Below the pieces are notes generated by a model. It saw only the letters and a program-made list of their open reading frames with translations. It made no database searches and was not told where the DNA came from. This document shows, in pieces, positions 2,500 through 36,852 of a DNA stretch of 64,000 nt. The first letter of the stretch is position 1. Each line of letters starts with the position of its first letter. The translations under genes and the position numbers were made by a program. Source of the DNA: Tridacna crocea (taxonomy: Eukaryota > Mollusca > Bivalvia > Cardiida > Cardiidae); assembly GCA_943736015.1 (NCBI GenBank), contig OX031061.1, positions 13,153,290-13,217,289 of the forward strand, in the 5' to 3' direction.

Positions 2500-2939
2500 G
2501 TATGAGCTGTCGATAGCTGTTATCTTTTTTTTAGTCAGTGTTATGGTGGCTTTTTCTATCTCAAGTCCAAATCAAGAGCTAAAAGAGCTAAAAGAGAGGC
2601 TAGACAAATTGCAGAAAGGCGACGACTCAGTGGATATGAAAGATATTCCAAACATCAAGCAGGAACTAAGGAAATACTATGAAGAAGTAAATTATTTCAC
2701 TCAGTCCTTGAAGTCAGAAATTGGTGATTTACGAGAAGACTTAAACTACATGTATAAGGTTGCCCAAAACAAACAAATACAGGACAAGTTGGAAATGCTA
2801 AAAGAGCACCATGAAAATCAAGCTCAGGAAATGACCGGAATTATGGCAGAATTGAAGTCCAAAATGAAAGAGCTGTCAGAGAAAGTTCAAGATCTTGGGA
2901 AAGATATCAGTCAAGTACAAGGCTACTTGGTAGCACATG
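2500..2939 (+). CDS. Exon 1 (in window) of host gene: membrane segment plus coiled coil
   Basis: Internal exon of an unrecognised gene, bounded by acceptor TATTTTCAG before 2500 and donor ATG|GTAAGT after 2939. The first base is the third base of a split codon and the exon ends on the first base of one (phase 1), so an upstream exon is needed; I could not find it between 1 and 2499. Counting the Tyr encoded at 2501 as residue 1, residues 2-21 are a hydrophobic membrane segment rich in Ile, Val and Phe. From about residue 26 the protein is highly charged with heptad-like Leu/Ile/Met spacing (QELKELKERLDKLQK and onward), which predicts a long coiled coil. The phase-1 end joins in frame to the exon at 10217, giving Gly147. 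The reading frame runs open upstream through the acceptor without an ATG, so I place the exon start at the splice site rather than at a translation start. Function is unknown. Confidence 0.82.
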
Positions 2940-3004
2940 GTAAGTCTGTAAATGAGCTATGCCCTGTGAAAAAGGGGTTTAATGCATTTCCATGCTCCAT
3001 TAAA

Positions 3005-3214
3005 TTAATCCTTTCCCAAACAAAACCTGGTGAAAGTCTTTGAAAACACTGTGAGAAAAGGAGAAATTGCTGGTAACCAGCAATTTCTCCTTTTCCTACA
3101 GTGTTTTCTAGCCTTTATGAGAACTTTTTGCAATTTTCTCCAAATCTAATATTGTCGTCTGCAAACTCTTTCGGTTTGGAAGGGTCCAAAATTTGTTGTT
3201 TAGGAAAGGGTTAA
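3005..3214 (-). mobile_element. Hairpin MITE copy just inside intron 1
   Basis: TTAA-bounded copy in the reverse orientation (AATCCTTTCCCAAAC ... GGAAAGGGTTAA) with hairpin TTGCTGGTAACCAGCAA. It begins 66 bp after the exon 1 donor. Confidence 0.75.
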
Positions 3215-3243
3215 GCAAGTCATCGCATATTAATCATGGACCC

Positions 3244-3472
3244 TTAACCCTTTCCCAAACAATCCCTGGTTTTTATGGGTCTAGAATAGTAGCCTTTTGA
3301 AAACATTGTGGAAAAAGAAGACAATGCTGGTAACCAGCATTTTCTTCTTTTCCCACAATGTTTTCTACCCTGCCATAGACAGAAATCATCTTTTCAACAG
3401 GAATTGAATTGTTGTCTGCAAATGCTTTCAATTTGGTCTAGTCCAAAAATTTGTCGTTTGGGAAAGGGTTAA
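3244..3472 (-). mobile_element. Hairpin MITE copy
   Basis: Full-length copy, TTAACCCTTTCCCAAAC to GGGAAAGGGTTAA, with hairpin ATGCTGGTAACCAGCAT. It is the second of three head-to-tail copies following exon 1. Confidence 0.78.
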
Positions 3473-3518
3473 AGTCAGCTTTGTCTCACAACTAGCTGAA
3501 TCATAAGTAAACTGGTTC

Positions 3519-3748
3519 TTAACTCTTTACCACACAATCCCGACTTTTAATGACTCTGAGAAAGAAGCCTGTAGAAAACATTGCGAAAAGGAGTAGATGC
3601 TGGTAACTAGCATTTTCTCTCTTTCCCACAATATTATCTACTCTATCAAAGTAAGTAATCATCACATTAGCAAGATTTAATTTGTTGTTGTCTGCAGATA
3701 CTCTAAATTTGGGCCAGTCCAAAAATTTGTTGTTTGGTAAAGGGTTAA
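3519..3748 (-). mobile_element. Hairpin MITE copy
   Basis: Full-length copy, TTAACTCTTTACCACAC to GGTAAAGGGTTAA, with hairpin ATGCTGGTAACTAGCAT. It is the third in a row after exon 1. The interval 3749-4106 holds a poly-T run at 3850-3868 and nothing else I recognise. Confidence 0.78.
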
Positions 3749-4106
3749 CCTGCAGAAAAAGTGACCAACAGTGAAATGTTTGTGCACGCTGAGCTGGGTC
3801 AATACATTTTGCAAATATATAATTCCTCTTTTAACAGAACATGGCTTAGTTTTTTTTTTTTTTTTTTTACAATTGTAGTTTGTACAATTGATTCTTATCA
3901 TCAGTCACTGTGACAAGAAAGGACAAGTTTTTTAATCATAAAAACAGCAAATAAACCCAAAGTAAAGCAGACATTGTAGATCAAAGATAAGGCTGCATAT
4001 TTTGTGCGGTTAAACCTTGGTTTACACTGGACAAAAAGGAAGCTTTAGTGGTGAAAGCTGCTTCAATAAATGCAGAAATAGACTGGTGCTCAGTGATAAG
4101 AAGTTT

Positions 4107-4238
4107 TACTCTTTACCAAACGACAAATGTTCAAATTGAAAGCATTTGCAGACGAAAAGTATATTATTCAAAATTTAAAATTTGTTGTTGGATGTTTAGA
4201 AAAAAAATTGGAAAAGGAGAAAATTATGTCCACCAGTT
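4107..4238 (+). mobile_element. Truncated hairpin MITE
   Basis: Left arm from TTTTACTCTTTACCAAACG to GGAGAAAATTATG. The element at 4239 starts inside its hairpin position, so the MITE is older than its neighbour. Confidence 0.55.
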
Positions 4239-6038
4239 TTTTAGCTCACCTGAGCATGAAGTACTCATGGTGAGCTATTGTGATCATGCTGTATCCATCG
4301 TCCGTCATCAACTCTTTACCTTGTGTACGCTAGAGGCCACATTTTCAGTCCGATACTCATGAAAATTGGTCAGGATGTTTGCCTCCATGAAATCTCACAC
4401 AAGTTTGAAAATGTCGGGTCAAAACTAGGTCACTAGGTCAAATCTTAGAAAAACCTTGTGTACGCTCTAGAGGCCACATTTTCAGTCGGATCAGGATGTT
4501 TGTCTGGATGATATCTCGGACGAGTTCGAAAATTGATCATGTGGGGTCAAAAACTGGGTCACTAGATCAAATTTTAGAAAAACCTTGTGTAGACTGTACG
4601 CTCTAGAGGCCACATTTTCAGTTGGATACTCATGAAAGTTGATTAGGATGTTTACCTCGATGATATCTCGGACGAGTTTGAAAATCGGTCATGTCGGGTC
4701 AAAATCTAGGTCACTAGGTCAAATCTTAGAAAAACCTTGTTTAGGCTCTAGAGGCCAAATTTTCAGTCCAAAACTCTTAGAAGTTCTTCAGAATGTTTGT
4801 CCTGATGATATCTCAGACAAATTTGAAAATGGGTCATGTCTGGTCAAAAACTAGGTCACTAGGTCAAAATTTAGAAAAACCTGGTATATGCTCTAGAGGC
4901 CACATTATCAGTCCGATACTCATAAAAGTTGGTCAGGATGTTTGTCTGGATAATATCTTAGGACGAGTTTGAAAATGGGTCATTTGGGTCACAAAATAGG
5001 TCACTAGGTCAAATCTTAGAAAAACATTGTGTTAGCTCTTAAGGCCACATTTTCAGTCGGATACTCATGAAAATTTGTCAGGATGTTTGCCTGGATATCT
5101 CGGACAAGAATGAAAATGGGCCATGTAGGGTCAAAAACTAGGTCACTAGGTCAAATTTTAGAAAAATGTTGTGTACCCTCTAGAGGCCAGATTTTCAGTC
5201 CAAAACTCTTAAAAGTTGGCCAGAATGTTTGTCTTGATAATATCTTGGACAAGTTCGAAAATGGATGATGTGGGGTCAAAAAAAAGGTCACTAGATCAAA
5301 TCTTTGAAAAACCTTGTGTACGCTCTAGAGGCCACATTTTCAGTCCAAAACTTTTGAAAGTTGGTCAGAATATTTGCCTTCATGATACCTTGAAGGAGTT
5401 TGAAAATGGGTCATGTGGAGTCAAAAACTAGGTCACTAGGTCAAATGTTAGAAAAACCTTTTGTAGGCTCTAGAGGCCACATTTTTAGTCCAAAACTCTT
5501 GTAAGTTGGTCAGAATGTTTGCCTTGATGATATATTAGACGAGTTTAAAAAAGGTCATTGGGAGTTAAAAAACTAGGTCACCAGGTCAAATCTTAGAAAA
5601 ACCTTGTATATGCTCCGGATGCCACATTTTCAGTCCAACACTCTTTAAAATTAGTAAGAATGTTTGTCTTAGATGAGTTTGAAAATAGCTCATGTTGGAT
5701 CAAAAACTGGGTCAGTAGGTCAAATGTTATAAACACCTTCATTTTCAGTCTGATACTCCTAAAACTTGTTCATAATATTTGTCCTGGTGATACCTTGAAT
5801 GAGTTTGAAAATGGGTCATGTGGAGTCAAAAACTAGATCAATGGGTCAAATATTAGAAAAACTTTGTGTACACTCTAGAGGCTACATTTTCTACCTGATA
5901 CTCTTCAGACTTGGTCAGAATGTTTGTTTTGGTGATGTCTCAAAAGAGTTTGATAATGGGTAATTGTTGGGTCCAAAACTAGGTCACTCGGTGAAATCTT
6001 AGAAAAACCTTTTGTACGCCTGTGCAGACTGAGAAGCT
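4239..6038 (+). repeat. Tandem-cored element with about 140-bp units
   Basis: The head reads TTTAGCTCACCTGAGCATGA and then CGTCCGTC. A long array follows, with imperfect units of about 140-150 bp carrying GGTCACTAGGTCAAATC, TTAGAAAAACCTTGTGTA, CTCTAGAGGCCACATTTTC and a GATGATATCTCGGACGAGTT block. About a dozen units are visible. The hairpin head and palindromic tail seen in other copies suggest a Helitron/HINE-like element; this is inference. The short open frames here come from the repeat. Confidence 0.75.
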
Positions 6039-6250
6039 TTAACCCATTACCAAACGACAAAATTTTAGGTTTGTCCAAACTGAAAGGAATTGCAGACGAA
6101 AAAAAAGTGAAAATTTTAAATTTGTTTTGTGAAGGGTAGAAAACATTGCGGGAAAAGGAGAAAATGCTGGTTACCAGCATTTTTTTCCTTTTCCCACAAT
6201 GTTTTCTAAAGGCTTCTCTTAGGGGTGTCAGTAGTAGCGTAATAGGTCAA
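6039..6250 (+). mobile_element. Hairpin MITE copy
   Basis: Runs from TTAACCCATTACCAAACG through hairpin ATGCTGGTTACCAGCAT to GTAATAGGTCAA. It cuts the array at 4239-6038, whose tail is missing. Confidence 0.72.
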
Positions 6251-6549
6251 ACCCCCTTTCCCCAGGCATGGCTCATACTGTTATGTATAAGTTCAAGTTA
6301 AAACATTAGTCATCTCCATTGAAGCTTTTTCCTTGAGTATAAAGTTACTGTTTGTGACAGTTCAAGTTGCGCTCGCCTGTTATCAAAGAAAACTAAAGGT
6401 ACTGCTTTAGCTCTGTTTTTGCATGCATTTTGCAATTTTCTGCAGTTAGGGGCAAAAGGGGTTACTGCATCTTTATGATGCATGATAGCATGCTAGTCAT
6501 TGCAAAATTATGGATACTTAAAATCTTTTTTATATAAGAATTGACTGGA

Positions 6550-9300
6550 TCATGATGTAGAATGGTCCTTTGATGTGGAAAAAATCAACCAATAGCAAAG
6601 TATTTCCATCCAGATTAGCCTGGAGAGACCCTTCATGGATTGTTTTCTTCAACAGAACATGGTACAAATATGTAACAATTTTTCTTGTATGAGCATGTTT
6701 TTTCTGTCCAGCACATTTTGTTACATCACCTTGGTGTACAACTTTTTTTATTTAAATATTAAAGATACATTGTTTTACTTAATTTATACTAACATGACAA
6801 GTTTTATTAAATTGATAAGTGTTTCCAAAGTAATATTAAGAAATCTAAAGCAGTTTCAAAGTTATAAACATTTTAACTTCGACATCATTTGTGATGTAAC
6901 TTTGGACAGAATGCACAAAACGCATTCAAATAAGAATAAAAATAAGTTCATTTTCCACTACCTGTGAATGTTCTGTTAATGAAGCAGTGGTATTTCAATA
7001 CTGTGAGGTAATATTTACATTTTACATAAAACTAATGATCCTTTTTGCCGAATATGTTGGTGATGTAACAGGACACATAATTGGCAAAACCTTGTTGGTC
7101 AATTTTGTATTTTGAACAAAATATGAATAGATTGTTAAATATTCTTCAAATTTTAGAATGTATTGAATTTATAAGCATATAGAAAATAAAATTGGGGGTA
7201 TTTCTGGGACAAAATACATTATTAAAAAAATTTAGTGATGTAACAATGGACACAGAATTATAATGTTGGTATAAAAAGTCATCAGAAACCAGAATTTTGT
7301 GCTTACATATGGCTCCTTATCAGATAAATGTAAAAAATTTAATGTCTGCGAAATGAAAAAATAAACATAACTCAGCTGTTTTTTTTTTTTGTTTTTATGA
7401 TAGAATGATTGTAACAAATGTAACCTAAATCTGAAAATACCTCCCAGTAAGGCCAAAGAAAAAAACATTTTAATTCTCATCCAGATTTTGATAAATTATG
7501 GGACGGATACCTGTGTTTTATCTTTTGGCAGTATTGGACAGTCAAACTTAAAAAGCGCTTCTTCAATTGGATTATTCAGACAAAGTACATAAAATTAACA
7601 ACTTCATCATTTAAAATGTTTAAATAGTTCATTCACTACAGCTCATATACTGGTTAACAGTATATGCATATTTTAGGCTTAGGTTTACTTTTATTCAGTA
7701 AAGATTTTGGGCAGGAACTTTGTGGATAAGAATCTAAAATATTTTTCTCCAGCCTGAGAAACTGGTTAGCCAGGCAATTATAGTGCATTGGACCTGGGGG
7801 CTCTCCATAGCAGTTGCACAGACAAAATCGTATCTATTGTCTCAGTTTATAGCTACTAAAACACATACTGTATATGTATTTTAACCAAATTTATAACTGA
7901 TAAAACATTGACAGTAAAATTTCAGATATTTCATCACAAGTTTGCAGTTACTTTAAGTCTTCCGCCTAAAAAGAGAATAAATAAAGAAGCATGAGAAATT
8001 TTGGTGATACACATAACAACTGGCATTTTAAGTGAATTTAAAAAAAAAAAGAATTTTCAGAATTGCTGAACTGCAATCAATAAAAAGAATCTATAAATAA
8101 TTTTAAGGTAATTATTTTATTTTGAAGATGGTGTTCTTTGAAATATTTCATATTTCAATCCATGATGTAACATTGACAACAAACAAAGCTGAAACACTTG
8201 GATGTCCAAATGACATCTTAGCATAAATATCCTCATTTTGGGATAAATGGCCTGCAATAAAACTCAGTAACCAACTCTGGATATACTCAGTCTGATTTAA
8301 AGCAGGTATGCATGTGTAATTTACTGGCTGTTCAGTTTCACGGAAGTTATCTATCAAATTGAAAAAAAGTCATTAGAACAGTTGAGGGTGGGGTACTTTT
8401 CGCCCTGCTAACGTCATTTTTCCTTTCACTATAAACGGCAAATTCATTCAAGTGCAAAAACCTCCATCTATTAAACTAACAATATCTTATCTTCATTCCT
8501 TCAGAAAAATATTAAAAAAAAAAAAAAAATACAGCTTTTCTTTGCAACTGGGGATGTAACAATTCTAAACACTTACCCCATTGTCACTTTCGGTTCTGTC
8601 ATTTTTCCTGCTGTGTCGCATATGCCTTCTAAAATTAATATCAATGGCTTACATCACTGATGAATTATGCAACATATTTTACAAATCTTGTAATATTATC
8701 GTTTTATTGATTTCCTTCTTTGAAAAAATTCTAGGGACGTAACATTTATGGACATGGTTTCCATACCGTATTTTGCCGATGCAATTATTTATGGCGTTAG
8801 CAGCATTGATTAATTCCTAGGTGTTTCGTACCACCGGCATTGAACCTATGTTCTAGCATGTTTTCAAAGAAAAAATGATTTTATAGGCATTTTGCCATGT
8901 CGTAACCATTGGACACGAATAGTTACATCCCAAACCCTAATTATTAAATGATATTTTCTAAATATTAGTGAAGTGTTTGGCATTTTGAAAGTTAGAATCT
9001 GAAAAAATTACCTACATGTATCTTTGAAATACTCAAAGGGTAGATATGAAGGACAACTCATCAGATTGATGTAAAAGACATCGAATTTTCCATTGGTTCA
9101 AAACGTTTTTGTTTTCTGTCCAAGATTCAGGATATATATTGAAAGATTTCTTCGCAAAAAAATGCTTAGAACTAAATATTTTTAACATTATTAATGTAAG
9201 ATTTATTAATCTTCCAGTACATGTTACCTTTGGTATTGTCATGTAAACAAGAAAGGAAATATTTGAGTCTTTTGGGATGTAACCAAAAAATGCAGGACAG
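6550..9300. repeat. Degenerate dispersed motif GATGTAAC...GGACA
   Basis: This AT-rich intron segment has no supported gene, but GATGTAAC followed by a GGACA or similar recurs near 6893, 7063, 7233, 8162, 8552, 8733 (GACGTAAC), 8893 and 9275. A weaker ATGTAACC lies near 7420. Several spacings are 165-185 bp or about twice that, as expected for a decayed tandem array. Confidence 0.4.
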
Positions 9301-9415
9301 AAAAAACATGCTCATATATTTGTCATTGGTAAAGAGATTTACTCTTAAGAAAGGCTAGTTGGTCAATATCAAACAGGGACCTCATACAATTATAAAATAT
9401 TACCCTGAAATAATT

Positions 9416-10113
9416 ATACCCCCCAAAACTCTGTTTGGGGAGTATGTAGGAGTCAGCTTGTTGGTCGGTCGGTCTGTAGCTTTTTGTCTGCTCTATTTCT
9501 CATAAACTATTAAACGAATTTTATTCAAACTTCACAAGTAAACTCAGTATCAAGCAGAGATGTGCATATGAAATATTTGTTATGGTTCATTGATTTTTCA
9601 CTGAGTTATGGCCCTTTCATGAAATTTCTTGTCTGCCCTTTTTCTCATCAACTATTGGACAGATTTGGTTCAAACTACACAAATAGACTCAGTATCAAGC
9701 AGAGAGTGCATATCCTATTTTGGTTATGGTTTATTTAGGTTTCATGGAGTTACGGCCCTTTGATGATTCTGAACAAATTTCTTTCAAACTTCATGGATAG
9801 ACTTTGCACTCAGCAAAGATATGCATATCATAAATTGTTCTTAGTTAATTAAATAAAATTTCCAAGAGCTTAGCCCTTTTTTGTCGTTCTCTTTATGACG
9901 GTGCCCTTGCTGAATTGATGAAAATAAATTACACTTTTGAGAGAATACTTTTAACATAGCTTCAAGAAGCCATTGCAGGATATTCATCACCTTCAGTGAT
10001 AGCTCTGGTATAATTGACTCTCCAGTCACTTATTTTGCATTCCTGTGACATTAATCTGTTTTGTGACAAGGAGCTGTTAGGGGATATGATCACGTTTAGT
10101 GATAGCTCTAGTT
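9416..10113 (+). repeat. Interspersed element with CCCCaaaa/ttttGGGG head
   Basis: Starts with the small hairpin CCCCCCAAAACTCTGTTTGGGG-like block at 9419, then GTCGGTCGGTCTG. Repeated units follow with TTTCTCATCAACTATTGGAC and CAAACT[TA]CACAAGTAGACTC (near 9495, 9645 and 9770). The likely end is TTTAGTGATAGCTCTAGTT at 10,095-10,113. Similar tails occur at 1981 and 43,115. Confidence 0.55.
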
Positions 10114-10216
10114 TTGACACAATTAGTGACCCTTTCTTCAACTAAGAGTCTTTTCTAAAAACCCACCCTTGACTATGTCTTAACACCTGCATATGTCTCT
10201 GTTGTTGTACTTACAG

Positions 10217-10471
10217 GCAAAGCAGTTGATACTTTAAAACTCCAACAAGGCACCATGAGGGAAGATACAGAAAAAAATAATCATACCATAGAAGGCATAC
10301 AGTCAGACCTGATTATTTACCAGAATGATATTAAAAACAATTTTTTTGAAATCCAGGCAAAGATGGCACAAGCTGACAAAGCTCAGAAAGAATTTGAGGA
10401 GCAAACATCAGGAAAATTTCAAAAACATGACCAAGAATTAGATACTGTTTTTGACAATTTAATTCACAAGA
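10217..10471 (+). CDS. Exon 2 of host gene: coiled-coil continuation
   Basis: A 255-bp phase 1-1 exon between acceptor CTTACAG and donor AAGA|GTAAGT. It encodes residues 148-231 of the visible product, starting KAVDTLKLQQGTMRED. The composition is again rich in Glu, Lys, Gln and Asp with regular hydrophobic spacing, so it continues the coiled coil of the preceding exon. An Asn-His-Thr sequon lies near the start of the exon; if the segment between the two membrane helices is extracellular or luminal, it could be glycosylated, but that is inference. The exon joins in frame to 2939 upstream and to 12092 downstream, where the split codon becomes Lys232. It has no stop in frame. The length is divisible by three, so skipping it would keep the frame and shorten the coiled coil. 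Confidence 0.85.
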
Positions 10472-10749
10472 GTAAGTATGCTGTTCCGTTAAGCCTCAGG
10501 TACAAAAGTGCCGCAAAATGTGCTTTTGTGGCCAGCATAGATCGAGATTATACTGTGCAGATCATGCACTGTCAGAAAGGTTTTGTAGCCGACAGAGTGA
10601 ATATTACCTATTGAAAGGATAGAAATATCGTGAAGAAAAAGAGACATTTTTGTTTACAAAATCGTAGATTATGAAGTAAATGTGGCTTAAAGGAGGAGAA
10701 TAGTTATTAGTATATGAAGCCTTGGGAAAATATTTGGAGAAAAATGCAA

Positions 10750-11180
10750 CAGCATGTCATTTTCCATCAAATCTATCGTAAACCATCTTCAGAACAATAA
10801 AGGCATGGTGCTTTTGGCCAACTTGAACACAAAGTTCTCAAAATTAACTTTAGTGATCATGCCTGGAGGCAATATATTCAATCTGATAGTCTTGAAAGTT
10901 AGACAGAATTTATGCCTTGACATATTCTTGGACACATTGAATATTGGGTCATGTTAGGTCAAATATTAGAAAAACCTTGTTTACACTTTCCAATATCAAT
11001 GAACGCTAGTCAGATAACTTGTTTTGACTTTATCTCTGACAACTTGAAATTGAGTCACAAAGGATAAGAAATTAGGTCACTGTGGAAAATCATAAAACTT
11101 TAATGTTCAAAATTTAGTCATGTGTGCTCTGTTAAGGTCACTATGACAAATATTAGAAAAACTTGGGTACAGTCATACCA
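10750..11180 (+). repeat. Diverged tandem-repeat fragments
   Basis: Two to three decayed units related to the array at 4239-6038 (GGTCATGTTAGGTCAAATAT, TTAGAAAAACCTTGTTTACA near 10,965-10,985). It directly follows the exon 2 donor region. No gene is seen. Confidence 0.5.
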
Positions 11181-11394
11181 CTTAGTTCTTACCTATGAAT
11201 CGGTCTCATGTCTTAGATTTTCTTAGTTCTTTCATAGAACTACTCAATTTTAAGCAACTAATTTGCGACTAGACAAGAATGTGTGAAAAAAGCTCAACAG
11301 CTGTTGATCTAATTTTCGTGTCAATTGGGTGTTTTAAACACAGGTTTTAGTGATCACTGTATGATCTACTATACTAGTAAAGGCTTCCAGGTTA

Positions 11395-12091: not shown

Positions 12092-12255
12092 AGGTGGCAA
12101 TGGTAGTCAGCATACTAATGCTGAGTGTAATTATCGGACTCATGATTGCTGTGTACATTCTCTGTCAGAACCAAACAAGATTACGCTCCCTTGTACATGG
12201 AAGGTGGGGTCAAAATGGTTCTGTGGATTTAAGTGATGGAGCAGTTGCCACATCT
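12092..12255 (+). CDS. Exon 3 of host gene: second membrane segment
   Basis: A 164-bp exon between acceptor TTTGTTTCAG and donor CATCT|GTAAGT, starting at phase 1 and ending on a complete codon (phase 0). It encodes residues 233-286. Residues 233-256 (VAMVVSILMLSVIIGLMIAV and the following Tyr-Ile-Leu-Cys) are an unbroken hydrophobic stretch of membrane-spanning length, directly after the coiled coil. They are followed by a basic stretch (RLRSLVHGRWGQ), consistent with the positive-inside rule and a cytosolic C-terminal side. With the helix in exon 1, the coiled coil would form a loop between two membrane anchors, with both ends of the protein in the cytosol. The topology is inferred from sequence only. 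The acceptor sits next to a fragment of tandem repeat at 11,960-12,075. Confidence 0.85.
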
Positions 12256-12274
12256 GTAAGTGTTTTGATACTCC

Positions 12275-14700: not shown

Positions 14701-14704
14701 CGTG

Positions 14705-17440: not shown

Positions 17441-17445
17441 TTCTA

Positions 17446-21304: not shown

Positions 21305-21534
21305 TTCAGTCTTGTTTTGGAAGAAATACCTATGAGACCACGTCTTCGACCAGCTTTGGGTGTGATCAGCTTTAGTAGGGAGTATCAGCAACTACATAAG
21401 AACCTTGTACAATCTGTGATGCAAAACTGGAAGGAAAACCTCAGTGTCGAATATTGTACCATCCTAGAAAACAGAGATATTCCGAAAATTCCACATTGTC
21501 GGCTGGTTGTTATTTTTGTTGAACACAGTGACAG
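21305..21534 (+). CDS. Exon 4 of host gene: start of C-terminal alpha/beta domain
   Basis: A 230-bp exon encoding residues 287-362 plus two bases of Arg363. Of two nearby acceptors I chose TTTTTTGTAG before 21305, because it keeps phase 0 with exon 12092-12255; the TTCAG ending at 21309 would break the frame. The donor is GACAG|GTGGGT. The exon encodes a likely beta strand (ALGVISFS, residues 303-310), a long amphipathic helix (about 311-331), a second strand (VEYCTIL, 334-340), the motif Arg-Asp-Ile-Pro (343-346), and a third strongly hydrophobic strand (CRLVVIFVE, 351-359). This alternation is typical of a Rossmann-like, flavodoxin-like or TIR-like fold. ISFS followed by a helix, and RDIP further on, recall TIR boxes 1 and 2, but the match is weak and I do not name a family. 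A TCTG microsatellite starts about 30 bp after the donor. Confidence 0.85.
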
Positions 21535-21750: not shown

Positions 21751-23730
21751 TTAGCTCACCTGAGCACGAAGTGCTCATGGTGAGCTTTTGTGATAACCCA
21801 GTGTCCGTTGTCCGTTGTCTGTTATGCGTCGTCCGTCGTCCACAATTTCTTTAAACATCTTCTCCTAAACCACTGGGCCAATCTGTATGAAACTTGGCAG
21901 GGATGTTCCTTGGGTAAAGCTTTATCAAAGTTCACGGCGGGGAATCACGTGACACAACAACAACAACAATGACCGTTATTTGAAAAAATTCCCCGACTTC
22001 AGGTAAGAAAATCTTCAATAATTCCGTTAATACATGACCGATTGGAATTTGGTTTGAAGCAGAGAAGGCGGAAGGACTCCGGGCATTTGCTTGATGTGTT
22101 AGATTTTTTAAACAACACCTGATAAAAAATTTATTGACGAGCAAACAAATTTTTTACCCTGTATAATTTGTTTGCTCGTCAATAACTTTTTTATCAGGTG
22201 TTGTTTAAAAAGTCTAACACATCAAGAAATTCCCCGGAGTCCTTCTGCCTTCTCTGCTTCAAACCAAATTCCAATCGGTCACGTATTAACGGAATTATTG
22301 AAGATTTTCTTACCTGAAGTTGGGGAATTTTTTCAAATAACGGTCATTGTTGTTGTTGTTGTGTCACGTGATTCCCCGCCGTGAAAGTTGTTCAAGAGAT
22401 TGAATTCCACCTATAATTCTGGTTGCCATGGCCACCAAAAGGAAAAAATAGCAATATCTTTGAAAATCTTCTCTGAAACTAGAAGGCGTAGAGCTTTGAT
22501 ATTTAGTATGTAGCATCTCCTAGTGGACCTCTACCAATATTGTTCATATGATGCCCCTGGGGTCAAAACTGGCCCCGTTCTGGGGGTTACAAGTTTGAAA
22601 CATAGAAATAAAGAAGGAAAACTTTAAAATTCTTCTTCTCTGAAACTAGAAGATGTAGGGGTTTAATATTTAGTATAAAGGATCTCCTAGTGGATTTCTA
22701 CAATGTTTGTTCATGTAATGTCCCTGGGGTCAAAACTTGCCCTGCCCCATGGGTCACAAGTTTGAAACATAGGAACAAAGAAGGAAACCTTTCCAAATCT
22801 TCTTCTCTAAAACTGGACGGAGTAAAGCTTTGATATTTGGTATGTAGCATCTCCTAGTAGACCTCTACCATGTTTGTTCATATGATGCCCCAGGGCTCAA
22901 AACTGGCCCCGCCCCAGGGGTCACAAGTTTGAACATAGGAACAAAAAAGGATAACTTTAAAATTATTCTTCTCTGAAACTCGAAGGCTTAGAGCTTTGAT
23001 ATTTTGTATAAAGCATCTCTTAGTAAACTCTTCAAATTTTGTTCATATGGTACCCCTGGGGTCCCAACTGGCCCCGCCCCGTGGGTCACAAGTTTGAACA
23101 TGGGGGAAAAAAGGAAAACTTTAAAATTCTTCTTCTTTGAAACCAGAAGTTGTTGAGCTTTGATATTTGGTAAAAAGCATCTCCTCTTGGACCTCTGCCA
23201 AGTTTATTTATATGATGCCCCTTGGGTCATAATTAGCCCAGCCACGGGGGTCACAAGTTTAAACATGGGAACTAAAAAGGAAGAAATTAAAATTATTCTT
23301 CTCTGAAACTAGAAAGTGTAGAGCTTTGATAGTGGTATATAGCATCTACTAGTGGACCTCTACCAAGTTTGTTCATAAAAAAGATGCCCCAGGGGTCTAA
23401 ATTGGCCTGCCCAAGGGGTCACAAGTTCTAAACATAGGAACAAAAAAGGAAAACTTTAAAGTTCTTTGGAGAGCTTTGATATTTGCAATATCAAATTGAC
23501 TTGAGACTTGGTGAACATATTTGTTGTATTGCTTGCTCTTTGCAGCTATTATACCTCCTTGACAATTGCTGGTGGAATGGGTATATGTTGCGACAATTTG
23601 CCACTCTTGTTTCATTATCATTTGGCCTTGAACCTCAATATTTTGTATTTATCTTCATTGTAGACCTTTACTACTTAGTACTCAGGTGAGGGATATAGGA
23701 CCATCATGGTCCTCTTGGTTACCCTTTCTA
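21751..23730 (+). repeat. Complete tandem-cored element in intron 4
   Basis: Head TTTAGCTCACCTGAGCACGA, then GTCCGTTGTCCG...GTCGTCC. Units of about 150-170 bp have GAGCTTTGATATTTGGTATG, AGCATCTCCTAGTGGACCTC and GGTCACAAGTTTGAACATAG. The tail is GGACCATCATGGTCCTCTTG. The same core units occur in 17,446-20,170. A foldback element is nested at 21,933-22,383. Confidence 0.75.
21933..22383. mobile_element. Complete foldback element, 451 bp, 6-bp target duplication
   Basis: Near-perfect palindrome of two arms of about 220 bp. The ends are CACGGCGGGGAATCACGTG and CACGTGATTCCCCGCCGTG; the centre is around GCAAACAAATTTTTTACCCT at 22,141-22,160. It is flanked by the direct duplication AAAGTT (21,927-21,932 and 22,384-22,389). 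Without it, the host repeat reads ATCAAAGTTGTTCAAGAG continuously, matching the sister repeat at about 17,600. The ORFs on both strands are mirror images of the arms. Confidence 0.88.
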
Positions 23731-28160: not shown

Positions 28161-28384
28161 TAGTTCCTATGGTTACCATACAATTCTGACTTTTAACATC
28201 CCGAAAGAAGTCTTTGGAAAACACTCTTGGAAAAGGAGAAAATGCTGATAATTAGCATTTTGTCCTTTTCTCTCAGTGTTTTCATCAAAGAGAGAAATCA
28301 TTATTTCATCAATGTTTAATTTGTTGTCTGCAAATGCTTTCAGTTTGGTCACATCCCAAATTTTGTCATTTGGTAAAGAGTTAA
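28159..28384 (-). mobile_element. Hairpin MITE copy
   Basis: GTTAGTTCCTATGGTTACCA to TTTGGTAAAGAGTTAA, with hairpin ATGCTGATAATTAGCAT. Confidence 0.68.
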
Positions 28385-29539
28385 AGATGGTTGCTTTACA
28401 TAATCTATAATCCTTTTCATATAAAACAAGAGAACCGAGATCTGCACTTTTATTAGTTCTGGTAAAGGTTTGTTGACCTACTGGTGACCTAGTACAAAGA
28501 GGGACAGGGCTTTACTGTTGTGATAAGGCATTTTGTTATCCAGTCAAACTGATCCTGCAACCTCAATAAAACAATTGCTACAATGCATATTTTTTTCTGT
28601 ATTTTCATGTTTCCCCACCCAAAATGGTTTGTAACAAGACCCTCTTTAACTATAACCAGAATACAAAATTTTCATATCTGGCCATAATAAAATCTTCAAA
28701 TTAGTAAAATTTTTATCAAAAAGGGTAGATATTATTGTGTAAAACTTTGAAAATGTAGGTTACTATTATTTTCTTCTTTTCTCACAATGTTTTTCATAGC
28801 TTTTTTTCTTTAGTGACCTAAAATGCAGGAATGAATGGTAATTGTTAAAAACTTCTCTTCACCGTTACAGAAAAATCAGGCCTGTGGAGCGATACAGGCG
28901 CTCAAGTGCCTCTAGTTAGAAAAGTAATGTAGGTACATGTATTATCGTTTGATGTCATTCTGAAACAAATACACGGGGATTGAAATGAGCCATGCCTTTG
29001 CCAGTTGTTGACTGTTGTAAATCTATTTATACACGTGATTGCGTACTTCCTGATTTTCCCTATGGTAATGTTTGCATAGCCACGCCCCTAGCCAGCACTG
29101 GCGCTCGTTTTCCTCTTTGCTATCTTGAAAGGCATTTACTATCTCAGTTTTTTTTTCCAAGAAATTACCTGCTTTCAATTGAAATAATAGATAGAAGAAA
29201 TGTTGCTCTTCACTGTGAAAGTCATACTCTGCTTCATGTTACCCTAGGCACTGTATGCAGATTGTAGATGAAGATCAGCCTGTACCTACTTACAGTCTGA
29301 TCTTGGTTTCCACTTCATGCAAACGTGCCAACAATCCCATACAAATAGTAGCATGTTTATAGAATGAAACATTTTAAACTTGCATTAATGTGTAATAATT
29401 GTAAATTCTGCTGGATACCAGCTGAATATTCAATTATTAGGGTTACAACTCCTAAAATGATTTTTGTTTTTTAGTATAAGCAATACCCCATGATTTATCA
29501 ATAAAAAGGATGTTTTTTCGACATGATTTCCCCCTCATG

Positions 29540-29697
29540 AATTTATTAAAAGTGTGTATGAGTGAGTGCTTGTGAGTATGTATGTTCACTGTAAATTATT
29601 GTCTTCACCAAACTTTATAACTTTTCATTATTCTGTCATATCCCCATGTATAATGTTTCACATTACTGGGTGAATAAAGAGATTTTGACTTTGACTT
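29540..29697 (+). mobile_element. 3' end of a non-LTR element
   Basis: Ends with CACATTACTGGGTGAATAAA, GAGATTTTGACTTTGAC. An AATAAA followed by a short tandem (TTTGAC)n tail is the usual 3' end of CR1/L2-type LINEs and their SINEs. No coding part remains. The rest of 28,920-30,100 has nothing I can support. Confidence 0.45.
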
Positions 29698-30107
29698 GGT
29701 AAGCAAATTATGTAGTACTGAAACTCAGACATTATACGTAACATTTAATGTTAACCCAATGGTTGTTTGAGGCTAGAAATAGTCGTTTACATTTGCAAAA
29801 AAAATCATCAAACTTTCATAGTTACTTACCTTTAAGGTTTTATTTAAATCCATGTTTAGAATAATAAAAAAATGCCGAATGTCTTATTGGAGTGAGATTA
29901 TCAAGATTATACAACACACTGCACGTTTTACAAAGGTTTCAGTGACATCAGTTCCTATTGACGTCAATTTTCATTGAACTTGGGCACTTAAAAGGGCAAT
30001 TCTATTTCGTTAGTTTACTCAGTTAATAAGATCATAAAGAGGGGAAATTCTGCTGAACATAAGTATGTTGGAATGCTAAAACTTCGCAGTATTATTAATG
30101 TTTTGTT

Positions 30108-30225
30108 GGATTAGGTGGCAGGGGGCTTTGAAACTTGTTCACGGCTGTGGCAAATCATGTTGCCACCTCTCCTCCGGCTTGGAGGGATATGATTAACCAC
30201 AGCCTGCCAACTGACCATACAACTA
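30108..30225. repeat. Eroded inverted-repeat element
   Basis: TTAGGTGGCAGGGGGCTTTG, then GGCTGTGGCAAATCATG and an inverted partner CATATGATTAACCACAGCC-like arm, ending AACTGACCATACAAC. It is related to 26,693-26,818. Confidence 0.5.
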
Positions 30226-30840
30226 ATAATGTTCCACGCTTATTATCCAATCAGGTTGCAAGAAATTTCCATGGAGTTTAATATTGTCATAAGTATTATG
30301 GGTCTGAGGTGTTCAAGGTTTCATTATACAGTCGTTTCCACTGCGGACAGTCTGGGTCTGTATTAGTCTGCATAAAACATGCGGTCTGGTCTGGAGTCTT
30401 AATTGTCCGTCAGTGAGTGAATCTGCTCATGAATATGGTAGTATTCTGAGTAAAAGTTATATCTTTATATCTGTTTTTTATTGTCATTGTAGACATACTG
30501 GATTAGGATCAGTAGATTTTGGATGCCTATCATTGGGGATGGCATTCCGCATTGATTCAATCGGCTGTTAAGTCTGTGCAACTTGTGCATTCTATTACTG
30601 AGTTTTTTTTTCTGTAAAGCATAAAAAATCATATACAAACATGCCATTTAAAAGTTGTAATTATTTGACTCGATCTGTTATGTTGATGTGTATATGTGTG
30701 TCAGCAGTATTATGGACTGGTGACTCTTAAATTTTGAAATTTTGAATAAAATATAATTACCCATAAAATAACTTGCTCTATATAATGCATCACAGAGATG
30801 CATTAATTTCCGTGTTGCCTGACAAAAAATTGTTTTTCAG

Positions 30841-30920
30841 GTATGTGATCCTTGAAGAAGAAGGCGATGCCCTTGGTAATTGCAACAGGAGCACATTGAT
30901 GGAGGTCCAAAAAATTGGAG
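30841..30920 (+). CDS. Exon 5 of host gene: alpha/beta domain, GC donor
   Basis: An 80-bp exon after acceptor TTGTTTTTCAG, encoding residues 364-389 (YVILEEEGDALGN, then NRSTLMEVQKIG). Its first base completes Arg363 and its last base starts Ala390. The donor is GGAG|GCAAGT, which fits the consensus of minor GC-AG introns (AG|GCAAGT). No GT donor that keeps the frame and phase lies nearby. The segment after the third beta strand is acidic and leads into a short helix, where many nucleotide- or NAD-binding alpha/beta folds carry functional residues; which residues matter here is unknown. A Harbinger-like element begins only about 60 bp downstream of this donor, within the intron. Confidence 0.78.
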
Positions 30921-30978
30921 GCAAGTTCGATTTGTGCAGTCGTATCTGTTCATCAATTACATGTATATGGATTTCCTT

Positions 30979-32032
30979 CCGGTCACACCAACCGAACTTT
31001 GCTGGAGCGTTCCTTGAACGGTAGGGAGGGGGTGCCGAATTTCAACAACGCTCGTCACCGCGCACAAACTGGGAAAAAATCGAAAACACGGGCGTTGGCT
31101 TTGGAGTGCACCGCTGAAGCCGGCGCTGCTTTAGCGTTGGTTTAGCAGTAGCCCGCGTTGGTTTAGCAGTGACTGGAGCGTTGGTATAGCGGCGTTCTGC
31201 TCACGCGGGCTTTGGCTCGACGGGGGTATAAAGTTGGTTTAGTGGCATACCGCTTGTGACTACAGAGCTGAACGGATCGTTTTCAGTATCCACTGTCCGA
31301 CCCACACAACTCTGTCTCTCCTACTTCTCTCTCTTCTCCTTCTGTCAACAGCTTGTTGCAGTCTGAGGAGGTTCTGATTCTGCTGCTGGACTAGTGCACC
31401 AATCATAGACTGTAACTTTGAGCAATTTCGATATAGATGAGGTCTGAACTCACCGCAGCTCGATTCCAAATGAGCCTCTGGTCCATTTCTTCCTGTATTT
31501 ATAGCCAAATTCTGGTCCCGCTCCGACACCTCTATACCAATGCCAAAACAAAGTACGTCGCTGCCATGGCTCGCTGCTTCAATGGCCGACACCGTTCCAG
31601 CAATACCCTGTCCACTTGTAAAACGCTTACAACCGCTCCACCGAAGTTTGTGCAACGTTTAATCGCCGCCCGGGCAACGCCGGCGAAGTAGCGGTGGTCC
31701 AGCGGTCAAGATTTCTGCGTTGGCCTAGCAGACCCAAGCGTCCATGAACTTGCGTCCAGTGGTGCCAAACTTTGAATGGGCGTAGGTGGAGCGGGGGTGA
31801 AATTTGCCGGGGTGGAAAATTGTCCCCTCCTCAATGCTCACAATATTTTGTGCAGCTTAAAACTTTCGGAGCGGTAGGAGAGCCCCTCGAGAAACATCAG
31901 CGGTGCCCGAGTGTATACAGGGTTGCTTTAACGGGGGCCAACTTTTGTTAAACAGAATGGTTACGAGCGGTGATGAATTCTTTTCACCGCTCCAGGAACG
32001 CCCTAGCAAAGTTAGGGTGGTGTGACTGGGCC
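30979..32032 (-). mobile_element. Harbinger-like non-autonomous element beside exon 5
   Basis: A GC-rich block of about 1.05 kb in AT-rich surroundings. Its termini are inverted: GGTCACACCAACC..AACTTTGCTGGAGCGTTCC at the left, and GGAACGCCCTAGCAAAGTTAG, GGTGGTGTGAC at the right. The minus strand carries a 131-codon frame (31,260-31,655) whose end reads AVDRRRRERSRRDRVVWVGQ. This resembles the Arg-rich RRRRR..R.VWVR start of HARBI1-type transposases, and then it breaks off without the DDE nuclease. The superfamily call rests on this motif and is tentative; exact ends and target duplication are unclear. Confidence 0.5.
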
Positions 32033-32119
32033 TTTAACTAGATTTACAGGAGACAACTTATGAAACATCCGTTTTGTTTTGGAGTTCACCTTTGACCCTT
32101 TTTCACACAATCCCATGTT

Positions 32120-32349
32120 TTAACCCTTTACCAAACAATCCCTCGTTTTTACGGGTCAGGGATAGAAGCCTTTTGAAAACATTGTGGGAAAAGGAGAAAA
32201 TGCTGGTAACCAGCATTTTCACCTTTTCCCACAGTGTTTTCTACCTTATCATATAGAAAAATCATCTTTGTAGCAACTGTAAAGTTGTCATCAGCAAAAT
32301 GCTTTCATATGTGGTCTGGTCCAAATTTTGCTGTTTGGAAAAGGGTTAA
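32120..32349 (-). mobile_element. Hairpin MITE copy
   Basis: TTAACCCTTTACCAAACAAT to TTTGGAAAAGGGTTAA, with hairpin ATGCTGGTAACCAGCAT. Confidence 0.76.
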
Positions 32350-32514
32350 AAAACCCGGAAGAAGGACGGTCTTTGAAAGCATTGTGAGTATTTGTGGTAA
32401 AGGGTTAGCATCGTCTTACTACGGTGAACTCTTCAAAAATCTTCATGTTCCTGTCTATAAATCCTACTGATAACTTTTGGATCAAAGCCTAATCTATTGG
32501 ATCGCTACCAAGGT

Positions 32515-34094
32515 TTTAGCTCATCTGAGCACGAAGTTCTCCTGGTGAGTGTTATGTCTCGATTGGGGAAAGACCCGAAACTCCATTTTCACGGAACCTA
32601 CAGCCAAGGTTTTCTAGAGCAAACTTAACTGAATTATGTTTTGAATAGTATAACATATAGGGGACATTAAAATTGCTCACAATACACTACAGAGAGCTGT
32701 TGTAGTCGTGCTGTGTCCGGCGTCGGTAGTCTGTCGTGTGTCATCAACCTTTTACCTTGTGTACACTCTAGAAGCCACATTTCAGTTAAATATTAATCGA
32801 ACTTGGTCAGAATTTTTGTCTTGATGATACCTCGGACGAGTTCAAAATGGGTCATGTTAGCACAAATTAGGTCACAAAATCAAAGCTATGTAAAATCTTG
32901 TGTACGCTCTAGAGGCCACATTTTCTGTCCAGTACTCCTAAAACTTGGTCAGAATATTTGCCTTGATAATATCTCGGATGGGTCAAATCTTACAAAAACC
33001 CTGTGTACTCTCTAGATGCCATATTTTCAGTTAGATATTCTTGAAAGTTGGTCAGATTTGTCTTGGTGATGTCTGGGACGAGTCTGAAAATGGGTCATGT
33101 TGGGTCAAAAACTAGGTCACCAGGGAAAATTTTGTACTTTTGTACCCTCTAGAAGCAACATTTTCTACCCAGTACACTTGAAAGTAAGTCAGAATGTTTG
33201 TCTTGTTATCTCGGACGAGTTACACCACCGGCCACGTTGGGTCAAATATTAGAAAAAACCTTGTGTACTTTCCAGGAGCCACAATTTTCTGCCCGATGCT
33301 TTGAAGGTTGGTCAAAATGTTAGTCTTGATAAAATCAAAGATTCAAAAATGGGCCATATCGGGTCAAAAACTTGATCACTAGGTTAAATCTTAGAAAAAC
33401 CTTGTGTACACTCCAGAGGACACATTTTCAGCCTGGCAATGCTCTCCAGAGCTGTTCATGATGTTTGAATGAGTTTGAAAATGGTAATGTCAGGTCAAAA
33501 ACTAGGTCGCTTGGTAAAATCTTAGAAAAACCTTGTGTACGATCTAGAGGTCAAATCTTCAGTCCAATACAGTTGAAATATTTATGTTGATAACATTTTA
33601 GACTGGTATAAGAATGGGTCATGTTGGGGAAAAAATGGAGCACTAGGTAAAATATCTGAAAAAGCTTTGGTACACACTAGAAATTACACTTTCAGTCCAA
33701 TATTCTTAATACTTGGTATGAGTGTTTGTCTTGATGATATCTTACATGACCTTGAAAATGAATATTGTGGAATCAAAAACTAGCTCACCAGGTCTAATGC
33801 TGGATAAACCTTATGTAGGCTCTAGAGGCTACATTTTTTTTCCGGTAATCTTAAAATTTGTTAAGAATTTTTTTCGTGATAATATCTTAGAATAGTATGA
33901 ATACGGGTCATGTTATATAAAAGACTAGGTCACTTGGTCAAATCTCATAAAAACCATATGCAAAGCCTACAGGCCACATTTTCTCTCGAATTCTCATGAA
34001 AGTTTGTCAGAATGTACATCTGGATAATTTTCACATGAAATACAGGGCCGTCATGATGACTACAACACGACTACAGGGCCATCATTGCCCTCTT
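32515..34094 (+). repeat. Tandem-cored element in intron 5
   Basis: Head GTTTTAGCTCATCTGAGCAC. The core has about nine units of the TCTAGAGGCCACATTTTC / GGTCACTAGGTCAAATC type. The tail is ACTACAGGGCCATCATTGCC, CTCTTGTTAG. Confidence 0.7.
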
Positions 34095-35160
34095 GTTAGC
34101 TCTTGTTAGCGGGCTTATGTCATGGCCCGGTGTCCGTCGTGCGTCCGTCCGCGCGTCCGTACGTCTGTCCTTCCATGCTTGCGTGCGGTAACTTTTACTT
34201 CAAACATCTTCTCTGAAACTACTCTTCAAATTTTGATGAAACTTCACAGAAATGATCCTGCCATGGTCCTCTTCAGAATTCCTTGAAAAATTTTATTCCT
34301 TCAAAACTCTGGTTACCATGGCAACAAAACTGATAAATATTGAAAATTTTCAAAAATCTTCTCTGAAACCGTAAGGCTTAGGGCTACCAAATATTGAACA
34401 TTTTCAAAAATCTTCTTCTCTGAAACCGTAAGGCCTAGGGCTACCAAATTTGGCATGTAGCTTTATCTAGTGGACTTCTACCATCTTCCTTTAAGTGATA
34501 GCCCTGGGGTCAAATTTGGCCCCGCCCCGGGGGTCACAAGTTTTATATTTATATGGGCTTTTGTAGGAAAACTTTGAAATCCTTCTAGTATCTAGCCATA
34601 GGGCCTAGGGCTGCCAAATTTCGCATGTATCTTTATCAAGTGGTTGTCTACCAAGAGTGCCCAAATGATAGCCCAGGGGTCAAATTTGGCCCCACCCATG
34701 GGATCACAATTTTTATTTGGGCTTGTGTAGGGAAGACTTTAAAATCATTCTGGTACCTAGCCGTATGGCCTAGGGCTTCTCAATTTTGCATCTAGCTTTA
34801 TCAAGTGGTTGTCTACTAATGGTGCCCAAATTAAAACCCTGGGGTTAAATTTGGCCCCGTCCTGGTGGTCACAAGTTTTACATGTGCTCCTATTGGATCT
34901 TTTTTAAAAATCTACTTGTACTTAATCATAAGGCCTAGGGCTACCAAATTTTGCATGTAGCTTTATCTAGTGGGCCTCTACCAGGAGGGCCCGAATTATA
35001 GCTTTGGGGTCAAGTTTGTCCCCACACCAGGGGTCACAAGTTTTACTTGGGCTTTTATGGTGAAAACTTTTTAAGTCATCATGTTACCAACCATTATAAA
35101 GACTAGGGCTACTAAATTTAGCCCTGTTTCATGGTTTTCATGTTTTACAGGGCCTTTTAT
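34095..35160 (+). repeat. Second-type tandem-cored element
   Basis: Begins with GTTAGCGGGCTTATGTCATG, GTCCGTCGTGCGTCC. Units carry CTAGCCATAAGGCCTAGGGC, TTTGCATGTAGCTTTATCTA and GGGGTCACAAGTTTTA. It ends ACAGGGCCTTTTATTTAA. Confidence 0.65.
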
Positions 35161-35858
35161 TTAATTCATTTGAGATATTATGACAAACAATTCTACCAAG
35201 AATTTCAGGAGTATTTGACTGAATAGGTTTTTCAAAGATTTGAAGCAGTGACCTAGATATTGACCCGAAATGATCCACTCACAAAATGTGGTCTCAGAAA
35301 TTATCAAAACAAACATTGTGACTAAATTTCATGAGTATTGCACTGAAAAGAGGACCTTTAGAAAGCACCCAACATTTTTCCTATGATTTGAACTAGTTTT
35401 TGACCCAAAATGACCCATTTTCGAACTCTACTGAGATATTATCATGACAAACATTCTGACAAATTTTCAAAGATTTTTTTTTCTAAAAATATGACCTCTA
35501 GAGCATACAGAAGGTTTTTCTAAGATAAGACCTAGAGAGCCGGTTTTCAACTTAACATGACTCATTTAACAAAATCTTGTGAGATGTCTTCAAGACAAAC
35601 ATTCTGACACTTTCAAAAGTAATGGGCAGAAAATGTTGATTCTAGAGCGTTCAGAAGTACAAAATTGGACCTGGTGACCTAGAAAAAGTGACCTCTACAG
35701 CATACACAAGGTTTTTCAAAGATTTGACCTAGTGACCTAGATTTTGAACAGACATGACCCTTTTTCAAATTCGTTATATGTATCTTCAAGACAAACATTT
35801 TTAAGAATTTTCAACGTTTGTGTACTGAAAATGTGGTCTCTGGAGCATATACAAGGTT
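35161..35858 (-). repeat. Tandem array in antisense orientation
   Basis: Reverse complement of the 4239-6038 units (CTCTAGAGCATACAGAAGG, AAAGATTTGACCTAGTGACC). It is cut at 35,859 by the head of the next element. Confidence 0.65.
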
Positions 35859-36456
35859 TTTAGCTCACCTGAGCAAAAAGTGCTCAGAGTGAGCTATTGC
35901 GATCACCCTCCGTCCGTCGTCGTTCGTCCGCCTGTTCACATTTCTTTGTTTACACCCTAGCATTTACAAATACCAACCAATCAGCACCAAACTTGGTCAT
36001 AGTAGATATGACCATAAGATCTTGGAAAAGTGTGATTATGGGTCTCTTCGCACCAGAACAACTTGAGTAATTTGCCCTTGAATTCAAGAAATGCTTTATT
36101 TCACTTTGTTTACACTCTAGCATCTACAAATATCAACCAATTAGCGCCAAACATGGTCAAAATATAAATGACCATAAGATCTTGGGTGAATTTGATTATG
36201 GGTCTAATCAGAGTAGAACGACTGGAGTTATATGCCATTGAATTAGCTCATTAAATATTTGATACAAATGACATTGGATAAGAATTGCCTCTATTCTTTA
36301 AAATCATCTTGGTTACATGTTTGAAAAATATTTTTTGTGGCTAGTGCAATATAGGATGTCTAATGGTTACTGTGATTATCATTACCTATTATGACATAAT
36401 GACATAACCATCTTTTTTGGCAATGTAGTGATAGAGGGCCACCATGGCCTTCTTAG
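35859..36456 (+). repeat. Short complete element just before exon 6
   Basis: Head TTTAGCTCACCTGAGCAAAA, CGTCCGTCGTCG. Two units carry TTGTTTACACTCTAGCATCT and ACCATAAGATCTTGG. The tail is AGAGGGCCACCATGGCCTTC. It ends about 130 bp before the exon 6 acceptor. Confidence 0.68.
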
Positions 36457-36589
36457 TCATTCTTAATTAGAGTTAATAGCCATGTTCTTATAATTTGTCC
36501 GCATGAAAAAAGCAAGTCTTCTCTAGAATAACATAATTAAGGTACAAAATCTGGTTTTAAGTTCCTTTAACAAACTATTTCCTTTTCAG

Positions 36590-36852
36590 CTGTACCAGTT
36601 ATAGTCTATGACAAAGACCTAGGCTCACGACGACTTTCAAGGGATCAGCTATACAACAAAAAAATCTGGAGTGTCAGATGCCAGAGAGAATTGATCAAGC
36701 TCAGTAGTTCTGATAGATTATTCAGTGTGTATGAAGAATTTACAGAGACACAGAAGCTAGCTTTTCGAAAGTTGATAGAATATCATCTACAACCTAACCT
36801 GCCAAAAAGACCACCTACAGTAAACGACTCCCTGCTGGAAACAGCTCCATGA
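36590..36852 (+). CDS. Exon 6, terminal coding exon of host gene
   Basis: The last coding exon starts after acceptor TTTCCTTTTCAG. Its first two bases complete Ala390, and the frame then runs open for 86 codons to a TGA at 36850-36852. It encodes a fourth predicted strand (VPVIVYDKD, from residue 391), a basic linker (GSRRLSRDQLYNKK), a segment with Trp and alternating hydrophobics, and a final helix (TETQKLAFRKLIEYHL), then a short Pro-rich tail. Together with exons 4 and 5 this makes an alpha/beta domain of roughly residues 300-460 on the likely cytosolic side. No AATAAA lies shortly after the stop; the nearest one I see is at about 37,370 inside a repetitive element. The C-terminus therefore ends cleanly, but the 3' UTR is not defined. 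I do not recognise the gene, and TIR-like signalling is only a hypothesis. Confidence 0.83.

What the first reader, a model, noticed from the sequence alone, without database searches (positions are those of the whole stretch)
2500..36852. Unassigned gene: two membrane segments, coiled-coil loop, alpha/beta C-terminal domain
Six exons join with matching phases (1, 1, 0, 2, 1) into one 476-residue open frame. The layout is membrane helix, about 200 residues of coiled coil, membrane helix, then a domain with four predicted beta strands separated by helices. Strands ISFS and CRLVVIFVE, and the RDIP and VPVIVYDKD segments, have the order expected of TIR-like or flavodoxin-like folds. A membrane-anchored coiled coil that brings together cytosolic TIR-like domains would be an uncommon receptor or adaptor design. 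The gene model is seen in the sequence; the fold and role are inference.
Basis: partly seen in the sequence, partly recalled or inferred. Interest (0 to 1): 0.85.

Follow-up and report, generated by a model that had tools for sequence, protein, structure and literature searches.

The report
Unassigned two-pass coiled-coil membrane protein gene
This looks like a real animal gene for a membrane protein with a long coiled coil between two membrane segments and an unassigned inner end, but nothing found here shows that the inner end is a TIR-type signalling domain.

Summary
The six exons are in the sequence as described: same coordinates, phases 1,1,0,2,1, 476 residues. Coding signal is clear for exons 1, 2 and 6, moderate for 4, modest for 3, weak for 5. 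The 80-bp exon 5 ranks 34th of 695 candidates and the exon 4 acceptor is poor. The gene extends further: two strongly coding, phase-matching exons lie 7 and 13 kb upstream of the window and add 235 hydrophilic residues before the first membrane segment. The likely product is a two-pass membrane protein with both ends in the cytosol, a helical, probably coiled-coil outer loop and a C-terminal alpha/beta domain. No relative of that domain was found in Pfam, NCBIfam, PADLOC, PDB, a 5.8-billion-protein set, or bacterial and viral contigs. TIR membership is not supported: no TIR model matches, and strands 2 and 3 lie 9 to 11 residues apart, which leaves little room for the usual helix. Paralogue number and mollusc expansion are untested, because the own-genome protein search did not complete.

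The parts
2500..2939 (+). coding exon 1: first membrane segment (about residues 3-21 of the 476) and first part of the coiled coil; acceptor expects phase 2
   Evidence: codon LLR 20.6, no open intron segment of this length; single copy within 284 kb
10217..10471 (+). coding exon 2: second part of the loop, with the loop's only N-glycosylation sequon (NHT, residue 168)
   Evidence: codon LLR 12.7, 0 of 187 null segments, 0 of 803 with both strands
12092..12255 (+). coding exon 3: second membrane segment (about residues 232-256) and basic linker
   Evidence: codon LLR 1.6, 120 of 1328 null segments as high, 727 of 5010 with both strands; single copy within 284 kb
21305..21534 (+). coding exon 4: predicted strand 1, helix 1, strand 2, strand 3 of the C-terminal domain
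   Evidence: codon LLR 4.2, 1 of 320 but 159 of 1275 with both strands; strong donor CAG|GTGGGT, weak acceptor
30796..30875 (+). putative coding exon 5 (80 bp), the least certain
   Evidence: phase-compatible; rank 34 of 695 by splice plus coding score; 299 of 7410 null segments as high, 2536 of 27766 with both strands
36590..36852 (+). coding exon 6: predicted strand and helices of the C-terminal domain, short tail, stop TGA
   Evidence: codon LLR 9.8, 0 of 161, 7 of 709 with both strands; fewer differences than its flanks in a duplicated copy

Best explanation
A real host gene encodes a two-pass membrane protein. A long hydrophilic N-terminal tail (two exons upstream of the window, 235 residues seen) lies in the cytosol. 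TM1 leads into a roughly 209-residue helical, probably coiled-coil loop on the outer or lumenal side. TM2 returns to the cytosol, where a basic linker carries a C-terminal alpha/beta domain of about 165 residues. Most likely mechanism (inferred): the loop makes the protein oligomerise or bind a partner on the far side of the membrane, which brings the cytosolic C-terminal domains and tails together to recruit partners, so it works as a clustered receptor or adaptor without a known enzyme signature. Shown by sequence: exon chain, phases, coding signal, two hydrophobic segments, helical period in the loop. Inferred: topology, oligomerisation, role. Not shown: the fold of the C-terminal domain.
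For: Exon chain and phases; coding periodicity 0 of 5000; per-exon coding scores; upstream exons at window positions -12863..-12366 and -6964..-6758, which end in phase 2, the phase exon 1 needs, with LLR 26.3 and 17.8 (no null segment as long as the first, 0 of 2088 for the second); exon 6 differs from its copy at 17 of 254 sites against 61 of 420 in the flanks, Fisher p 0.0018; hydropathy; helical period in the loop, one loop sequon, and 3 K/R with 0 D/E in the 20 residues after TM2, which suggests a cytosolic C-terminus.
Against: Exon 5 and the exon 3-4 junction are weak, and with both strands as null exons 3, 4 and 5 are not exceptional. No transcript or homologue confirms that exons 1-3 and exons 4-6 belong to one gene. 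The start codon is not found. The loop's period peaks slightly above 3.5, and its second part has no significant 3.5 period (p 0.28). Models of the C-terminal exons are low confidence (pLDDT 54 and 47). The last 30 residues before TM1 are only slightly basic (7 K/R, 5 D/E). Four sequons lie in parts placed in the cytosol, which says nothing either way. Differences in exon 6 are not concentrated at third codon positions (8, 5, 4), so constraint on the protein itself is not shown.
Confidence: 0.4

Rival explanations
1. A structural tether or scaffold of an internal membrane (ER, Golgi or mitochondrial): the coiled coil spaces membranes or shapes a lumen, and the cytosolic parts bind cytoskeleton or vesicle machinery, without signalling.
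For: Two membrane segments joined by a long polar helical loop, a charged hydrophilic tail, no enzyme or receptor family above cut-off.
Against: A compact alpha/beta-looking C-terminal domain would be unusual for a pure spacer; a sequon in the loop is compatible with either. Nothing here tests localisation.
Confidence: 0.3
2. A two-pass receptor or adaptor whose C-terminal domain is a divergent TIR domain.
For: Order ISFS - helix - YCTILENRDIP - CRLVVIFVE - VPVIVYDKD resembles a TIR strand order (recalled); the low-confidence model of exon 4 gives strand, helix, strand, a three-residue helical turn, strand.
Against: No TIR or SEFIR model at E up to 10; 9 to 11 residues between strands 2 and 3, little room for helix B; RDIP is not the RDxxPG loop; no WCxxE-like catalytic motif in the reading (motifs recalled); best structural match E 1.2.
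Confidence: 0.1
3. Two neighbouring genes, or one gene plus decaying exons: exons 1-3 with the upstream exons form one membrane protein that ends after TM2, and exons 4-6 belong to something else or are partly dead.
For: Weak acceptor of exon 4, weak exon 5; exon 4 is reached by 159 of 1275 null segments; introns of 9 kb and 15 kb with no transcript; exon 3 read-through meets a stop after 20 codons; a dead copy of exon 6 exists downstream.
Against: Same strand, consistent phases, coding signal in exon 4 on the + strand null and in exon 6, strong donor of exon 4.
Confidence: 0.2

Closest known systems
TIR-domain receptors and adaptors (Toll-like receptors, IL-1R family, SARM1, TRAM; features recalled)
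   Same: Cytosolic alpha/beta domain near a membrane anchor; superficially similar strand order.
   Different: No TIR model match; spacing leaves little room for helix B; no RDxxPG loop; loop is helical, not LRR or Ig; two membrane passes.
BST2/tetherin (topology only, recalled)
   Same: N-terminal cytosolic tail, membrane segment, extracellular coiled coil, second membrane anchor.
   Different: Second anchor is a transmembrane helix followed by about 220 residues, not a GPI anchor; the membrane and loop part matched no PDB sequence at E up to 0.01.
Bacterial two-pass chemoreceptors and sensor kinases (topology only, recalled)
   Same: TM1 - helical outer domain - TM2 - cytosolic output domain.
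   Different: No chemoreceptor, HAMP or kinase model among the 14 Pfam families listed at E up to 1, all 14 below their cut-offs.
Bivalve receptor-like TRADD-N proteins (PMC8195603, passages seen)
   Same: Bivalve membrane proteins with cytosolic immune-type modules, expanded in Crassostrea virginica.
   Different: Those have a cysteine-rich ectodomain and DED plus TRADD-N; no such Pfam domain listed here at E up to 1.

Membership tests
TIR domain | matches a TIR or SEFIR profile | tested here: not met
   No such Pfam model at E up to 10 for the C-terminal 190 residues or at E up to 1 for the 711-residue model; HMMER filters drop most matches above about 0.1
TIR domain | strand A - helix A - strand B order | tested here: inconclusive
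   Exon 4 model has strand 16-22, helices 24-29 and 31-45, strand 49-53, strand 65-70, but mean pLDDT 54
TIR domain | helix B between strands B and C | tested here: inconclusive
   9 to 11 residues between the strands by sequence reading and model, with only a three-residue helical turn in the low-confidence model; leans to not met; the feature is recalled
TIR domain | BB loop RDxxPG | tested here: not met
   Sequence reads NRDIPKIP; motif recalled
TIR domain | NADase or adaptor activity through TIR-TIR contacts | not testable with these tools
   needs assays
flavodoxin-like fold | five-stranded parallel sheet with alternating helices | tested here: inconclusive
   Only exon pieces were modelled, pLDDT 54 and 47; the short link between strands 2 and 3 argues against
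tetherin-like topology | N-terminal TM followed by a coiled coil | tested here: inconclusive
   TM1 by hydropathy; loop has a helical period, not exactly 3.5; the start of the protein is not seen
tetherin-like topology | C-terminal GPI anchor | tested here: not met
   TM2 is followed by about 220 residues in the model
lineage-expanded molluscan family | many paralogues in the genome | not tested
   own-genome protein search unanswered in 28 requests; within 284 kb around the gene only one copy, of exon 6 and dead

The most novel reading that the evidence does not exclude
A previously undescribed animal receptor design: a double-pass protein whose outer coiled coil clusters a new class of cytosolic alpha/beta signalling domain, not TIR but built on a related strand order, with a long, possibly phosphorylated N-terminal tail on the same side.
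Probability: 0.12. Interest if true: 0.7.

Novelty: new variant of a known kind. Interest (0 to 1): 0.35.

Why it matters
If the model holds, it adds an unassigned cytosolic domain joined to a double-anchored helical loop, an arrangement that could sense or bridge membranes. It also shows that the gene is larger than the window suggested, which matters for anyone who folds or clones it. As it stands the domain is an orphan only with respect to the collections searched here, which may hold few molluscs.

Tried and rejected
TIR, SEFIR or flavodoxin membership: not supported or undecided, for lack of any profile or structure match and because of the strand spacing. A ferredoxin-like beta-alpha-beta-beta-alpha-beta order fits the strand order as well, but is only a reading. 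Weak Pfam matches of the loop (DUF948, Apolipoprotein, Prominin and others; those shown are below their cut-offs, and one search showed 25 of 77 families) were taken as coiled-coil noise. RasGEF_N_2 on exon 4 (E 0.035, 14.9 bits against a cut-off of 27) and MgtE in PDB (E 0.35) were taken as chance. A 5' exon at 755-861, or its twin at -3598..-3483, was rejected: good donors, but coding scores (start context included) of 1.3 and -0.6, against 26.3 and 17.8 for the exons preferred here. Exons between 3 and 4 were sought; the ones listed had coding scores from -2.2 to 1.8. Fold search with the exon 4 model: 292 matches at E up to 10, best 1.2. Literature: five answered searches; judged by titles and starts of abstracts, none of the listed papers is on such a protein; passages of PMC8195603 alone were seen, the rest only as listings.

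Full report
What was checked. The six exons are 2500-2939, 10217-10471, 12092-12255, 21305-21534, 30796-30875 and 36590-36852 on the + strand.

Is it more than chance? The joined exons carry a codon-position G bias of 0.136, against 0.035 +/- 0.022 for open intron segments, 0 of 5000 resamplings as high; reading the exons one or two bases out of frame gives -0.122 and -0.016. A codon log-likelihood score, trained on other open frames of the region, gives 20.6, 12.7, 1.6, 4.2, 2.4 and 9.8 for exons 1 to 6. Open intron segments of equal length on the + strand reach those values in: no such segment (exon 1), 0 of 187, 120 of 1328, 1 of 320, 299 of 7410 and 0 of 161. With both strands and 70 kb as null, the figures are: no segment, 0 of 803, 727 of 5010, 159 of 1275, 2536 of 27766 and 7 of 709. 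The segments overlap and are not independent. Within 284 kb, five exons have one copy and exon 6 has two, while 14 of 20 random 240-bp pieces of the gene region have further copies; the rest of the genome was not searched.

Weak points. Exon 5 ranks 34th of 695 phase-compatible candidates in its 15-kb intron when splice and coding scores are added, and 30th of 289 non-repetitive ones by splice score alone. The exon 4 acceptor at 21305 scores -7.8 against -0.1 for the one five bases later, which would need a different phase. No transcript is available.

Support for exon 6. A 690-bp stretch containing exon 6 has a copy 30 kb downstream (window coordinates 66317-66986, in L021). Relative to exon 6 the copy lacks 7 and 2 bases and has a stop, so it is taken as dead. 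The two differ at 17 of 254 aligned exon sites and at 61 of 420 flanking sites (Fisher p 0.0018), which fits constraint on the exon. The exon differences are not concentrated at third codon positions (8, 5, 4 at positions 1, 2, 3), so most of them may have arisen in the dead copy, and constraint on the protein is not shown.

The gene is longer. Exon 1 has no in-frame ATG ahead of the first membrane segment. Scanning upstream found two open segments, L010:7137-7634 and L009:3036-3242, that is -12863..-12366 and -6964..-6758 in window coordinates, with coding scores 26.3 and 17.8; no null segment is as long as the first, and 0 of 2088 reach the second. Both have an AG acceptor and a GT donor, and both end in phase 2, which is what the next acceptor needs. 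They add 235 hydrophilic residues with 36 K/R and 41 D/E. The first has an acceptor, so at least one more 5' exon should exist; it was not found. The longer model has 711 residues.

Anatomy. Hydrophobic segments lie at about residues 3-21 and 232-256 of the 476. Between them are 209 residues, 51% E, K, Q, R, D or N. Their hydrophobic period at 3.5 residues exceeds shuffles (p 0.001; first part 0.0025, second part 0.28), but the power is a little higher at 3.6 and 3.67, so the helix is better supported than the heptad. The loop has one N-glycosylation sequon; four others lie elsewhere. After TM2 come 3 basic and no acidic residues in 20, which by the positive-inside rule (recalled) puts the C-terminus in the cytosol. 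The N-terminal tail, long and hydrophilic, is put there too, although its last 30 residues are only slightly basic. The C-terminal domain, about residues 290-465, reads strand-helix-strand-strand-(exon 5)-strand-helices. AlphaFold2 models of single exons without an alignment give strand, helix, strand, strand for exon 4 (pLDDT 54) and an unusable model for exon 6 (pLDDT 47).

Relatives. None in Pfam above cut-off. For the C-terminal domain none in NCBIfam, PADLOC, PDB sequences, the 5.8-billion protein set in three searches (39, 578 and 4 candidates, none within the E-value limit), bacterial and archaeal contigs or viral contigs; the last two reach close relatives only. The membrane and loop part matched no PDB sequence at E up to 0.01. 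None of these collections is known to be rich in molluscs, and no control for that was run, so absence says little about animals. The protein search of the window's own genome did not complete 28 times; paralogue number and expansion are untested.

Interpretation. The layout is credible; the TIR reading is not supported. TIR and flavodoxin folds put a helix between the second and third strands (recalled), whereas here 9 to 11 residues separate YCTIL from RLVVIF. The RDIP segment lacks the RDxxPG form (recalled). A ferredoxin-like order would fit equally well. The explanation chosen is a two-pass protein whose helical loop clusters cytosolic parts. The main rivals are an organelle tether and a mis-joined model.

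Surroundings. More than half (56%) of the 284 kb around the gene matches itself elsewhere in that stretch, the window has many tandem arrays, and its right half holds frames of mobile elements. No Rfam family reaches its gathering score in the window. Downstream of the window lie a BIR-domain frame, a RING frame and a BEL/Pao element.

Noticed in passing
L010:7137-7634 and L009:3036-3242 (window coordinates -12863..-12366 and -6964..-6758): Two strongly coding, phase-2-to-phase-2 exons upstream of the window that fit the 5' side of this gene and give a long hydrophilic N-terminal tail; neither has a Pfam match.
   Followed up: partly
L021 near 2653-2901 (window coordinates 66653-66901): A dead copy of exon 6, lacking 7 and 2 bases and with a stop, in a 690-bp duplicated stretch 86% identical.
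   Followed up: yes
4491-6010, 22467-23466, 37828-39573 and others: Tandem arrays with periods of about 145, 167 and 314 bp, some similar to arrays 30-60 kb away.
   Followed up: no
55935-56639 (-), 54001-62200 (+): A mariner/Tc1-type transposase frame (Transposase_1 and HTH models above cut-off) and LINE-like frames, one matching Exo_endo_phos just below its cut-off and three tested without a match.
   Followed up: partly
31263-31658 (-): An open frame with a high coding score (14.7) on the opposite strand in the intron between exons 5 and 6, with no Pfam match.
   Followed up: partly
L022:1795-2190, L025:6089-6427, L026:530-5752 (about 76, 110 and 115-120 kb in window coordinates): Downstream neighbours: a BIR-domain frame, a RING frame whose end resembles MDM2 (recalled), and a BEL/Pao retrotransposon frame.
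   Followed up: partly
about 77-86 kb in window coordinates (L022-L023), minus strand: A cluster of long frames that looks like a Polinton-type element, with one frame like a packaging ATPase (recalled resemblance, not tested).
   Followed up: no
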